Below, piece by piece: positions 5,971-9,765 of a stretch of 64,000 nt of DNA; within the stretch, counting starts at the first letter, position 1, and each line of letters opens with the position of its first letter. The position numbers and the translations under genes were made by a program. The stretch lies in the NCBI RefSeq assembly GCF_003555505.1, contig NZ_CP032152.1, positions 434,001-498,000 of the forward strand, read 5' to 3'. A model generated the notes under the pieces. It did not search any database and had not been told where the DNA came from. It saw nothing but the letters and a program-made list of their open reading frames with translations. Origin of the DNA: Thermosynechococcus sichuanensis E542. Lineage in GTDB: Bacteria; Cyanobacteriota; Cyanobacteriia; Thermosynechococcales; Thermosynechococcaceae.

Positions 5971-5973
5971 GTG

Positions 5974-6786
5974 ATGGGCGTGGACAAACTAGCGGCCTTG
6001 CGCGATCTCATTGGTGAACTCGATCAAGCCTTGATTGCCTACTCCGGTGGCATTGATAGTACGCTCGTGGCCAAGGTGGCTCAGGATGTCTTGGGCGATC
6101 GCGCGGTGGCGGTCACAGCGGTTTCTCCGTCGCTATTTCCAGCGGACTTAGAGGATGCCCGTATTCAGGCGGCGGCCATTGGCATTCGCCATGAACTGAT
6201 TGAAACCCATGAACTGGACAACCCCAACTACGCCACCAACCCCGTGAATCGCTGCTACTTTTGCAAAAGTGAACTCCATGATCGCCTGCGGGAACTGGCT
6301 CAGGCGTGGGGCTATGACTATATTCTCGATGGCGTGAATGCCGATGATCTTCAAGACTATCGCCCCGGCATTGCTGCGGCCAAAGAACGGGGGGTGCGAT
6401 CGCCCCTAGCCGAGGTGGGGATTACCAAACTAGAGGTGCGGGAAATTGCCAAATCCCTTGGTCTGCCGTGGTGGAATAAACCCGCCCAACCCTGCCTCAG
6501 CTCGCGCTTTCCCTACGGTGAAGAAATTACCCTTGCCAAGCTACAACGGGTAGGCAATGCTGAATACTACCTCCGCCAGCAGGGCTGGGAACTGTGCCGC
6601 GTCCGCAGCCATGGCGATACGGCTCGCATTGAGGTGCCCCAAGCGCAAATTGCTGAGTTTGTGACGATGACGGATCTCGAGAAGCTGGTGAACCACTTTC
6701 AGTCCCTTGGTTTTACCTATGTCACTTTAGATCTGGAGGGCTTTCGCAGTGGCAAACTCAACGCGGTGATTGGGCGCGATCGCTAA
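5974..6786 (+). CDS. larE: LarE-type ATP-dependent sacrificial sulfur transferase
   Basis: This 270-residue PP-loop (ATP pyrophosphatase) protein has the signature AYSGGIDSTLVAKVA near residue 23, then NRCYFCKSELHDRL and KPAQPCLSSRFPYG. In LarE of Lactiplantibacillus the Cys of the last motif donates its sulfur to pyridinium-dicarboxylate mononucleotide, building the nickel-pincer cofactor of lactate racemase; that Cys is kept here. Neither larB/larC nor a racemase is in this window, so its target is unknown. The ATG at 5974 follows an in-frame GTG at 5971; either may be used. The 3' end overlaps the convergent DinG-like gene by 29 bp. Confidence 0.88.
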   Translation: MGVDKLAALRDLIGELDQALIAYSGGIDSTLVAKVAQDVLGDRAVAVTAVSPSLFPADLEDARIQAAAIGIRHELIETHELDNPNYATNPVNRCYFCKSELHDRLRELAQAWGYDYILDGVNADDLQDYRPGIAAAKERGVRSPLAEVGITKLEVREIAKSLGLPWWNKPAQPCLSSRFPYGEEITLAKLQRVGNAEYYLRQQGWELCRVRSHGDTARIEVPQAQIAEFVTMTDLEKLVNHFQSLGFTYVTLDLEGFRSGKLNAVIGRDR

Positions 6787-8230
6787 CGCGGTTGTAGGGA
6801 CTGAGACTCTGGAGAATTTCCCGGCCATAGCTGCGCTCCGTGAGCCGCCGATCCAAAATAGCCACCAGCGTGTCATCCTGACGCACCGGGGCAAGGGCAC
6901 GATCCAGCACGGTCAAGCACTCTGGCAAGAGATACTGGCGAAACCAATCCTGTTTTTGTTGCTTGTGCCATTCAATGCGGGCACTCACCACCGCTTTTTC
7001 CGGCGAGGGCAAGGGCAACGTCGTCAAAACAAAGAGAGCCGGACAGGGCAACTGCGCCCCATGCCGCAGCCAAAAGGCTTCCCCTGTCACTAAAATTGTG
7101 TTCGTGTCAAGGGTCGTCGTCTCCACCTGCACCCGTGAACCGTAAAGAGCAGCCAATTGGGTGGCCAACTGTTCCCGCAGGGGCACATCACTAACGAGGA
7201 TTACTGCCCGCCGATGGCCAATGGTGCCAATGAGATCATAGAGGCGTCGCAAAACCGCTGGGGCAAATTCTGGGGTGTTGGGCAAGGGTAAGTCTTCGGC
7301 AATCGCAAGGGTAATCGCTTCACTGTGGCGATCGCCAGCAAATTTGATCGTTGTTTGGGGCGGAATACCCAGTTCCTGCTGCACATAGGCTAGAGGGGGG
7401 TCTGTCTCTGGTCCACTACCGATGAAGACAAAGGGTGCCTGGCACCAAAGATGCTCAAAATAGCAGCGGAAACTGAGGGGATGTCCTTGGAGGCTGAAGT
7501 AGCCCACGGTGGGGTGGCGCCGTCCCCAAATCACCGTGTCACTGCGGTTGAGGTAATCCCGCAATTGCAACCATTGGGGAGGCAAGGCTTGCGGCCATTG
7601 ATGGAGCAGTTCAAGGAGCGGTTGCCGTTCTGTGGAGGTAAGCAGATAGTCGCCATAGGGATTCTGCGGTCGCTGAAAGAGGTGCTGCGCCAACTGGGCA
7701 TAGACTTGGCGAATGGCATCAACAGCACTGGGAATCGCTAGTTTCAAATGCTCCCAATCGCTGGTGGTAATTGTACAGGTCATCTGCTGCTGGGCAATTT
7801 GCGGCAAGGCTTCAATGCCATCAATGATTGTGACGACATTGGGATGGGCGTTGGCGTGGCGACACCAGTCCTCAAGGCTCATTACAAGCAACCCCTCAAA
7901 GGCTGGCTGCGGGCAGTGGCTCTGCTGAATCGGTTTCGTTACCGCAAGAAAGGTGAGCAGCTCAGGAATTTCTTGGTGTAGCAGTCGCGTCAGTCGCTCT
8001 TGGGGGACGACGAGCAGGGCCGGCTCAGGATACAACAGCAGCGGCAGCAGATAACTCAGACCATAGCGATGCTGCAACACCGCCCGCTGGCTAACCTGAA
8101 GTAAGCACCCCCGCCGCAGCCGCAGGGCACGGGCAACCAACCGCGCCAAGGTGAGATGGTGAGGCCACCGGCGATCGCCACTGCTGCGTAAAAATGCCCG
8201 TAATTGGCGGTGAACCTCTGCCTCAATCAC
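6758..8230 (-). CDS. DinG-related helicase-like protein lacking Walker A
   Basis: The product is about 490 residues. The C-terminal part looks like the DinG/XPD helicase C-terminal domain: LFVLTTLPLPSPEKAVVSAR, then WFRQYLLPECLTVLDRA, then VAILDRRL..YG near the end, in the order found in DinG motifs V-VI. The N-terminal half has a motif-Ia-like strand and VTIIDGIEALP where a DEAH box would be. I find no GKT/GKS Walker A, and the DEAH and QxxGRxxR motifs are degraded, so ATP-dependent unwinding is doubtful. The GTG at 8230 (IEAEVHRQLRAFLRS) is preferred; the frame is open to a TTG at 8254. It lies 41 nt downstream of murE on the same strand. Function is unknown. Confidence 0.7.
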   Translation of the reverse strand: MIEAEVHRQLRAFLRSSGDRRWPHHLTLARLVARALRLRRGCLLQVSQRAVLQHRYGLSYLLPLLLYPEPALLVVPQERLTRLLHQEIPELLTFLAVTKPIQQSHCPQPAFEGLLVMSLEDWCRHANAHPNVVTIIDGIEALPQIAQQQMTCTITTSDWEHLKLAIPSAVDAIRQVYAQLAQHLFQRPQNPYGDYLLTSTERQPLLELLHQWPQALPPQWLQLRDYLNRSDTVIWGRRHPTVGYFSLQGHPLSFRCYFEHLWCQAPFVFIGSGPETDPPLAYVQQELGIPPQTTIKFAGDRHSEAITLAIAEDLPLPNTPEFAPAVLRRLYDLIGTIGHRRAVILVSDVPLREQLATQLAALYGSRVQVETTTLDTNTILVTGEAFWLRHGAQLPCPALFVLTTLPLPSPEKAVVSARIEWHKQQKQDWFRQYLLPECLTVLDRALAPVRQDDTLVAILDRRLTERSYGREILQSLSPYNRVSDRAQSPR

Positions 8231-8271
8231 AATCTGCTCGCTGTGGAACAACAATCCCCTATTGTGGCACG

Positions 8272-9765
8272 TTAGCCTTGCTCCGGTCGTTGTTTGCGTC
8301 GCTGTTCGAGGGCAGTGCGGGCTTCTTCGCGATCGTCAAAGTGAACTTTTTCAGTGCCCAGAATTTGGTAGTCCTCATGACCTTTACCGGCAATAATCAC
8401 GCCATCGCCGGGGGCTGCGCTCAGAATTGCCTGGAGAATGGCTTGGCGGCGATCGGCTTCAACAATCAGCGGCGTTTGCGGTGGGATACCAGCCAAGATG
8501 TCATCCAGAATGCGGCGGGGATCCTCAGTGCGCGGGTTATCGGAGGTCACCACCACTTGATCCGCAAGGCGGGCAGCAATGGCACCCATTTGGGGACGTT
8601 TGGTGCGATCGCGATCGCCCCCACAGCCAAAGACACAGATCAGCTTACCGGGAATAAAGGGACGGGCAGCTTTTAACAAGTTCTCAAGGCTATCGGGGGT
8701 ATGGGCATAATCCACAAGCACGGTAATCTCTTGGTCTGGGCTAATGCGCACCTGCTCCATCCGCCCCGGTACCCCGGCAAAGTCACGAATGGCCTTGAGC
8801 ATCGATTCTAAGGGCAGTCCCACCGCTGCCCCCATGGCGATCGCTGCTAGCACATTGGCCACATTAAACTGTCCCACCAAGGGTGAGTCTAGGGTGCCGC
8901 TACCGATAGGGGTATGAACTGTGCCTGTCACACCATTGACACGATAGTTAAGGTTCTCAGCTCGAAAATCGGCATTCTCGCTGAGGCCATAGGTCCAGTA
9001 GCGATCGCGCGGCAACTGTTGAGCCAGTCGCTGGCCAAAGGGATCATCGCCATTGAGAATTGCTCGACCCTTGAGATAGTCAGCAGTAAAGAGCTTAGCC
9101 TTAGCGGCAAAATAGTCCTCCAGATCGCGGTGATAGTCTAGATGATCTTGGGTCAAGTTGGTAAAAGCCGCCACTTCAAACTGACAGCCCCACACCCGAT
9201 CCTGCGCTAAAGCATGGGAACTCACCTCCATTACCCCGAACCGACAGCCCGCTGCAACTGCTGCCGCCAATTGTTCCTGAAGGGTCACCGCGAAGGGCGT
9301 GGTGTGACTGGCCATCTCACAGTGTCCCGGCCAGCGGCTGTAGAGCGTTCCCAAGAGTGCTGTTGGATAGCCCACACTGTTGAGGAGATGTTCCACCAAG
9401 TGGGTGGTGGTTGTTTTGCCATTCGTCCCCGTAACTCCCAAGAGACTGAGCTGTTGACTGGGGTAACCATAAAATGCGGCAGCGAGCCGACCACAGGCAC
9501 GTTCAATATCGGGGACTACAATTACGCAGGCATCCCCTTCACGGGGTTTGGCTTGAGGAGACACCACTGCGGCGATCGCCCCTGCTGCCAAGGCACTCGG
9601 CCAAAAATTGCCCCCGTCCACCCGCGTGCCGGGCATACCAATAAACAACGAGCCACGCTGACACTCCCAAGAATTCGTACTCAGGGACTTCACCTCTTGA
9701 TCGAGGGCAGGATGCTCAAAACTGGGCGTAATCGCTGCCGCGGTCAGGAGTTCCCGTAGGTTCAT
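8272..9765 (-). CDS. murE: UDP-MurNAc-tripeptide synthetase MurE (meso-DAP-adding)
   Basis: This 497-residue cytoplasmic Mur ligase adds meso-diaminopimelate to UDP-MurNAc-L-Ala-D-Glu in peptidoglycan synthesis. It shows the ATP-binding loop GVTGTNGKTTTTHLVEHLL, the carbamoylated-Lys region with MEVSSHAL, the ADP-proximal NGDDPFG, and DNPRTEDP near residue 415. The DNPR motif marks meso-DAP rather than Lys specificity. The length is normal for the family. The ATG at 9765 gives the expected N-terminus MNLRELLTAA. The 350 nt upstream, shared with a divergent small gene, should hold its promoter. Confidence 0.95.
   Translation of the reverse strand: MNLRELLTAAAITPSFEHPALDQEVKSLSTNSWECQRGSLFIGMPGTRVDGGNFWPSALAAGAIAAVVSPQAKPREGDACVIVVPDIERACGRLAAAFYGYPSQQLSLLGVTGTNGKTTTTHLVEHLLNSVGYPTALLGTLYSRWPGHCEMASHTTPFAVTLQEQLAAAVAAGCRFGVMEVSSHALAQDRVWGCQFEVAAFTNLTQDHLDYHRDLEDYFAAKAKLFTADYLKGRAILNGDDPFGQRLAQQLPRDRYWTYGLSENADFRAENLNYRVNGVTGTVHTPIGSGTLDSPLVGQFNVANVLAAIAMGAAVGLPLESMLKAIRDFAGVPGRMEQVRISPDQEITVLVDYAHTPDSLENLLKAARPFIPGKLICVFGCGGDRDRTKRPQMGAIAARLADQVVVTSDNPRTEDPRRILDDILAGIPPQTPLIVEADRRQAILQAILSAAPGDGVIIAGKGHEDYQILGTEKVHFDDREEARTALEQRRKQRPEQG

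What the first reader, a model, noticed from the sequence alone, without database searches (positions are those of the whole stretch)
6758..8230. DinG-like protein without Walker A or DEAH motif
The end of the protein keeps DinG-type motifs (PxPSPEKAVVSAR, WFRQYLLPE, AILDRRL..YG) but I find no GKT/GKS and only DGIE in place of DEAH. A helicase fold that cannot hydrolyse ATP may be a regulatory or structural DNA-binding protein. The placement right after murE is also unusual for a repair gene.
Basis: partly seen in the sequence, partly recalled or inferred. Interest (0 to 1): 0.5.

Follow-up and report, generated by a model that had tools for sequence, protein, structure and literature searches.

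The report
Inactivated DinG helicase relative in cyanobacteria
This gene encodes a DNA-helicase look-alike whose engine parts (the ATP site and the iron-sulfur domain) are gone, yet about nine in ten of the sampled cyanobacteria keep it; this 'short DinG' type was described in 2025, and what is added here is how widespread it is, which working helicase it seems to come from, and a small unknown protein it tends to travel with.

Summary
The ORF (minus strand, 6758-8254; from 8230 if the family-typical GTG is the start) is a full-length but dead relative of DinG/YoaA (XPD-type) helicases. Profiles of the family and of intact cyanobacterial YoaA align over 467 columns (E 2.9e-32). The Walker A lysine is Tyr, His, Trp or Ser in 98 of 98 homologs, DEAH is mostly D-G-x-[D/E], and the iron-sulfur domain and arginine finger are lost. 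It is not decaying: dN/dS is 0.06-0.10 against seven close genus members and 0.14-0.16 against two distant ones. The family is in 132 of 145 sampled genomes of the class; this genome shows no other DinG-type gene. Other classes of the phylum hold intact versions (11 of 11 fetched), which group with the dead clade (UFBoot 88). It fits 'sDinG', named in a 2025 review (PMC11981726), so it is a known kind. Added here: breadth, origin and a link to DUF1815 (next downstream in 50 of 120 genomes; both absent in 38 of 38 genomes of one family). The murE neighbourhood is genus-specific. DNA binding is inferred; no structure could be predicted.

The parts
6758..8254 (-). sDinG-type inactive DinG/YoaA-like protein (498 aa from TTG 8254; 490 aa from GTG 8230, the family-typical start)
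   Evidence: ORF; Helicase_C_2 above cut-off; hhalign of the family profile to intact YoaA, E 2.9e-32 over 467 columns; dN/dS 0.06-0.10 to seven close, 0.14-0.16 to two distant genus members
8048..8095 (-). Codons for residues 54-69 (V-S-Q-R-A-V-L-Q-H-R-Y-G-L-S-Y-L), the degenerate Walker A region: K to Y64, S/T to G65, loop four residues longer than the P-loop of the intact relatives
   Evidence: alignment with 18 intact relatives and two E. coli proteins; lysine column K in 0 of 98; loop span 15 here against 11 in 20 of 20 intact proteins
7811..7822 (-). Codons for D145-G-I-E148, in place of Walker B DEAH
6785..6952 (-). Codons for residues 435-490: the best conserved part (DWFRxYLLP ... AP.R ... 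D.R...SYG ... L.P), equivalent to motif VI and the HD2 C-terminus; the arginine-finger column reads P456
   Evidence: invariant columns W437 F438 P444 R458 D468 R470 G477 P486 in 61 sequences; motif table
8272..9765 (-). murE, directly upstream; context only, adjacency seen only in this genus
   Evidence: compared with positions

Best explanation
The protein is an inactive helicase of the DinG/YoaA (XPD-like) family, of the type named sDinG. SHOWN by sequence: it is homologous to full helicases over its length; the ATP-binding lysine, the DEAH box, motifs III and V, the arginine finger and the iron-sulfur domain are lost or degenerate, while the gene, and above all the end of motor domain 2 (HD2), is kept under selection. 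INFERRED: it neither binds ATP productively nor moves along DNA; it acts as a fixed binding module whose conserved HD2 face holds single-stranded nucleic acid or a partner protein, much as the Deinococcus PriA pseudohelicase keeps DNA and partner binding without ATPase. INFERRED, weaker: it works in the same process as the DUF1815 protein. It is unlikely to be a regulatory subunit of an active DinG, because none was found in this genome or in most of those sampled.
For: Full-length homology to intact YoaA and to solved DinG structures (6fwr, E 2e-11). Motif columns: K 0 of 98; DEAH E kept in 10 of 98 and H in 7 of 98; SAT columns mostly G, E/G, A; arginine-finger column P in 31 of 37; iron-sulfur columns deleted in 37 of 37. 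Intact relatives in other classes of the phylum, 11 of 11 fetched, and tree. Purifying selection: dN/dS 0.06-0.10 (seven) and 0.14-0.16 (two), murE 0.03-0.10 (five). F638, which packs on a deoxyribose in E. coli DinG (PMC6300356, passage), is Phe in 37 of 37; D671, R673 and G680 are invariant too. DUF1815 follows it in 50 of 120 genomes that hold both, over 15 families, and both are absent in 38 of 38 genomes of family f24. No canonical DinG found in this genome.
Against: No biochemistry and no structure prediction. Of 25 canon-invariant columns in the N-terminal HD1 part only 3 are kept, of 13 in the iron-sulfur region none, and even in HD2 most are not (5 of 12 at its end, 6 of 24 around motif VI). 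F615, the second sugar-packing residue of DinG, is kept in only 14 of 37 and is Leu here. So DNA binding may be lost as well; the 2025 review could model only partial DNA, on MD2. The protein is not basic (pI 7.7; family median 6.5). The motif VI alignment is uncertain by about one residue, and an invariant Arg (R458) lies two positions on, so a displaced arginine is not excluded. DUF1815 is absent from 12 genomes that keep the dead helicase, so it is no obligatory partner, and the joint absence in f24 may be a single event.
Confidence: 0.68

Rival explanations
1. It has lost DNA binding too and is purely a protein-protein module (for example with DUF1815) in a process unrelated to DNA repair.
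For: Most HD1 invariants and the iron-sulfur region are gone, and F615 is mostly changed; neutral to acidic pI; the commonest neighbour is a protein of unknown function, not a repair gene.
Against: The F638 and R673 equivalents on HD2 are invariant in 37 of 37, and in the 2025 review a partial DNA complex could be modelled on MD2.
Confidence: 0.27
2. It still binds or hydrolyses a nucleotide through an unusual site in place of the Walker motifs.
For: The aspartate of Walker B is kept in 80 of 98 and the column after the lysine is Arg in 72 of 98, so the cleft is conserved in its own way.
Against: K is 0 of 98, the loop is longer than in intact proteins in 83 of 98, and the arginine-finger and SAT columns are changed; AlphaFold3 in the 2025 review could not place ATP and put an extra helix in the site.
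Confidence: 0.04
3. It is a decaying relic with no function.
For: The catalytic motifs are lost, and one family (f24) has no copy in 38 of 38 genomes.
Against: 132 of 145 genomes keep it, genomes of 1.6-1.9 Mb among them; dN/dS 0.06-0.16 within the genus; 18 invariant columns over 61 members.
Confidence: 0.01

Closest known systems
sDinG (short-type DinG; Nostoc sp. PCC 7120 representative; Cheng 2025, PMC11981726)
   Same: Two motor domains, no iron-sulfur domain, ATP-binding residues missing; the review's extra helix between beta1 and alpha3 may correspond to the longer P-loop region here (inferred from sequence only)
   Different: The review lists Nostocales, Chroococcidiopsidales and Pleurocapsales; here relatives are found in 132 of 145 genomes of the class, this genus included. 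In 15 of 98 members the loop has the canonical length. The Nostoc protein itself was not compared.
Intact YoaA/DinG-type helicases of other classes in the same phylum (L146-L156)
   Same: Full-length homology; shared W-F, L-P, D-x-R and YG positions; closest intact relatives in the tree (UFBoot 88)
   Different: They keep Walker A (AG[TA]G[SC]GKS), DEAH, QG[FV]GRLIR and three or four cysteines between Walker A and DEAH
E. coli YoaA and DinG
   Same: Overall domain order and HD2 end
   Different: Active ATPases and helicases; YoaA works with HolC (PMC11981726 section 3.2)
Deinococcus radiodurans PriA pseudohelicase (PMC4504706, abstract)
   Same: A replication-restart helicase kept without ATPase or unwinding
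   Different: Different helicase family; DNA binding and a DnaB interaction are reported there, nothing is shown here

Membership tests
sDinG (Cheng 2025) | Homology to DinG-like motor domains MD1 and MD2 | tested here: met
   hhalign over 467 columns, E 2.9e-32; Helicase_C_2; 6fwr by profile
sDinG (Cheng 2025) | No iron-sulfur or pseudo-iron-sulfur domain | tested here: met
   cysteine columns deleted in 37 of 37 aligned members; 10 of 13 canon-invariant columns of the region deleted in at least 80%
sDinG (Cheng 2025) | Missing ATP-binding residues | tested here: met
   Walker A lysine in 0 of 98
sDinG (Cheng 2025) | Extra helix alpha3a between beta1 and alpha3, compact arch | tested here: inconclusive
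   the loop at this place is longer than in intact proteins in 83 of 98, the window included; no structure could be predicted
sDinG (Cheng 2025) | Sequence similarity to the Nostoc PCC 7120 protein itself | not tested
Active DinG/YoaA helicase | Walker A, DEAH, arginine finger | tested here: not met
Active DinG/YoaA helicase | Iron-sulfur cluster domain | tested here: not met
Pseudohelicase (functional class) | No ATPase or unwinding but retained binding function | not testable with these tools
   needs purified protein; the sequence agrees with the first half only

The most novel reading that the evidence does not exclude
On the stem of the oxygenic cyanobacteria an iron-sulfur XPD-family repair helicase was turned into a motor-less protein that became a core part of the lineage, together with the newly arisen DUF1815 protein, while most of the lineage lost its active DinG/YoaA. 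The pair forms an unrecognised cyanobacterial module acting on single-stranded nucleic acid or the replication fork.
Probability: 0.3. Interest if true: 0.62.

Novelty: new member of a known kind. Interest (0 to 1): 0.42.

Why it matters
A helicase fold kept in most of a class of bacteria without its engine is a good case of a catalytic protein turned into something else. The intact relatives in other classes of the phylum place the change on the stem of the class (inferred; that the class is the oxygenic cyanobacteria is recalled, the window's genus being Thermosynechococcus by the record titles). If the membership stands, it extends 'sDinG' from the three orders listed in the review to most of the class, means that a DinG or YoaA helicase label on these proteins would be wrong in function, and gives a testable partner for DUF1815, for which my one search found two papers and, in the one I opened, a single mention.

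Tried and rejected
Threonyl-tRNA ligase (E 0.002) and viral replicase hits (E 0.26 and above) in a single-sequence search of solved structures were set aside as chance: the profile search ranks DinG first (2e-11, 4.4e-6) and its other three hits have E above 0.5. A murE-linked role was rejected: outside the genus I see no murE closer than about 5 kb on the same contig; five genomes have it about 5-9 kb away (G046, G048, G071, G113, G141; read by eye; only genes on one contig can be judged). Viral contigs gave no relatives. A regulator of a canonical DinG partner is unlikely for most species: none found in this genome, and 8 of 145 have a full or nearly full one (which scored at most 7 candidates a genome). 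Decay was rejected. Promoter and terminator scans were at chance level. Literature: searches (31 papers, 20 listed; 3; 13; 53, 10 listed; 0) gave one paper on sDinG among those listed, PMC11981726, which states that no study of its function exists.

Structure prediction was asked for six times and not accepted, because 100 jobs were waiting; so no fold search was made.

Limits: the tree uses 478 columns, one model (LG+F+G4), and a very long stem for the dead clade (1.56), so long-branch effects are possible; the support of 88 for the union with the intact enzymes of other classes is below the usual 95. The 98 homologs are those in the loci fetched, not one for each of the 132 genomes.

Full report
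What is there. It begins 17 nt after murE, and its 3' end overlaps the convergent ORF 5971-6786 by 29 nt. Pfam recognises only the helicase C-terminal domain (30.4 bits, cut-off 25.3); NCBIfam gives YoaA and DinG models far below their cut-offs (best 67.6 against 680 bits). In the whole genome (2.65 Mb, one contig) this is the only match to Helicase_C_2 and to the YoaA model at E 0.001; the same Helicase_C_2 search rings in 10 of 14 control genomes, Synechococcus elongatus among them. The genus is Thermosynechococcus by the titles of the closest records.

Homology. A profile of 61 family members (A1) against six intact YoaA-type proteins of cyanobacteria (A2) aligns 467 columns at E 2.9e-32; nine early-branching members give 4.2e-31. 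Against solved structures the profile finds the DinG helicase 6fwr (2e-11) and a 3'-5' exonuclease DinG, 8zef (4.4e-6). So the N-terminal half is DinG-derived too, although no library model covers it for the window protein.

Motifs. Aligned with 18 intact relatives, the family reads: motif I 'EAGTGSGKS' to 'Q-V-S-G-S-G-E-H-R' in some early branches; the loop has the canonical span (11) in 15 of 98 and is longer in 83, with 15 residues in 58, the window ('QVSQRAVLQHRYGLS') among them. The lysine column is Y68 H21 W8 S1 and the next column R72 G10 W8 L4 and four singles. The DEAH columns keep D in 80, E in 10, A in 47 and H in 7 of 98. The SAT columns are mostly G (28), E or G (28) and A (20 of 37). 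In motif VI the finger arginine column is proline in 31 of 37; the alignment there is uncertain by about one residue. The iron-sulfur cysteine columns are deleted in 37 of 37. Of 25 canon-invariant columns in the first part of HD1, 3 are kept in at least 80% of members; of 13 in the iron-sulfur region, none; of 24 around motif VI, 6; of 12 at the end of HD2, 5. F638 of E. coli DinG, which packs on a sugar of bound ssDNA (PMC6300356, passage seen), is Phe in 37 of 37, and D671, R673 and G680 are invariant; F615, the other sugar-packing residue, is kept in only 14 of 37 and is Leu here.

Selection. Within the genus dN/dS is 0.062-0.098 for seven close comparisons and 0.138-0.159 for two more distant ones with dS above 1.4; one pair outside the genus was saturated. 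For murE in five of the genomes it is 0.029-0.098. The gene is under purifying selection.

Distribution. 132 of 145 sampled genomes of the class have it; the 13 without are 12 of family f24 and G045 (87% complete). A profile search of these 13 at E 0.1 found nothing either, while it found the gene in G000, searched with them. All 38 held genomes of f24, 8 genera, lack it (that call had no positive control of its own, but the same profile rings). Canonical YoaA-type genes, full or nearly so, occur in 8 of 145 genomes, with one fragment at a contig edge in a ninth; all 8 also carry the dead relative, and 7 of the 8 belong to families f14, f30 and f33, whose dead copies form the first-splitting clade of the dead family in the tree. 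One search scored at most 7 candidates a genome.

Origin. In a sample of the phylum 77 of 146 genomes matched the profile, 13 of them outside the class; 69 did not match, of which 20 are listed, all outside the class. I fetched 11 of the 13; all 11 have a Walker A, DEAH and QG[FV]GRLIR and three or four cysteines between Walker A and DEAH. In the tree (57 sequences, 478 columns, rooted on E. coli DinG) the 37 dead proteins form one clade (UFBoot 100), which joins these 11 (88) before the 7 cyanobacterial YoaA (100). The reading is one inactivation on the stem of the class; support for the joining node is moderate and the stem is long.

Neighbourhood. murE adjacency is found in 8 of 8 genomes of the genus and not elsewhere as far as contigs allow. 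In 41 loci read (window plus 40 chosen for breadth) the commonest neighbours are a ~125-aa protein, in 20 of 41, and a prephenate dehydrogenase, in 15 of 41. The first is DUF1815 (PF08844). DUF1815 is in 121 of 145 genomes, and in 1 of 14 control genomes, Synechococcus elongatus. Put together, 120 genomes have both, 12 only the dead helicase (8 of them in f2), 12 neither (all f24; 4 of these are unlisted but listed as empty) and 1 only DUF1815 (G045). It lies downstream on the same strand, 0.4-1.7 kb from the match, in 50 of the 120, over 15 families. It is absent from 16 of 16 genomes of other classes tested and from 38 of 38 of f24. In this genome it is 1.25 Mb away. The gap is too long to claim one transcript, and the joint absence in f24 may be one event, so this is a link, not proof of partnership.

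Literature. A 2025 review (PMC11981726; outline, passages, and sections 2, 3.2, 3.9 and 4 read) names short-type DinG, sDinG, from Nostoc PCC 7120: no iron-sulfur domain, ATP residues missing, no study of function, listed for Nostocales, Chroococcidiopsidales and Pleurocapsales. The window protein fits that description, so the kind is known. My searches listed no paper that gives a function to sDinG or DUF1815; one paper reports higher transcription upstream of a DUF1815 gene in a branchless phenotype and already notes that its homologs are limited to cyanobacteria (PMC5580265, one passage). Pseudohelicases are known elsewhere: Deinococcus PriA (PMC4504706, abstract) and Utp25 (PMC9539457, search listing only).

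Most likely working. With no Walker A lysine, mostly no catalytic glutamate, no clear arginine finger and no iron-sulfur wedge, ATP-driven movement is very unlikely (inference from known motif roles). What selection keeps is the fold and part of the HD2 end, which in DinG contacts ssDNA. I think a fixed ssDNA- or partner-binding role is most likely, perhaps in one process with DUF1815. That it binds anything is not shown.

Noticed in passing
G000:C1:1692318-1692614 (outside the window); many of L161-L196 next to sDinG: DUF1815 (PF08844), found in 121 of 145 sampled genomes of the class and in 0 of 16 tested outside it, often follows sDinG and is missing with it in family f24.
   Followed up: partly
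L035-L042: YoaA-type helicases, motifs intact in the 7 aligned, survive in a few cyanobacterial families (f14, f30, f33, f21) beside the dead copy.
   Followed up: partly
window 5971-6786 (+): A convergent ORF with an SGGIDS motif (LarE-like by recall, not tested) overlaps the end of the sDinG gene by 29 nt.
   Followed up: no
15 of the 41 loci read, e.g. L185:11087-11983: A prephenate dehydrogenase gene (by Pfam, for the L185 copy) lies near sDinG on the opposite strand, mostly divergent.
   Followed up: no
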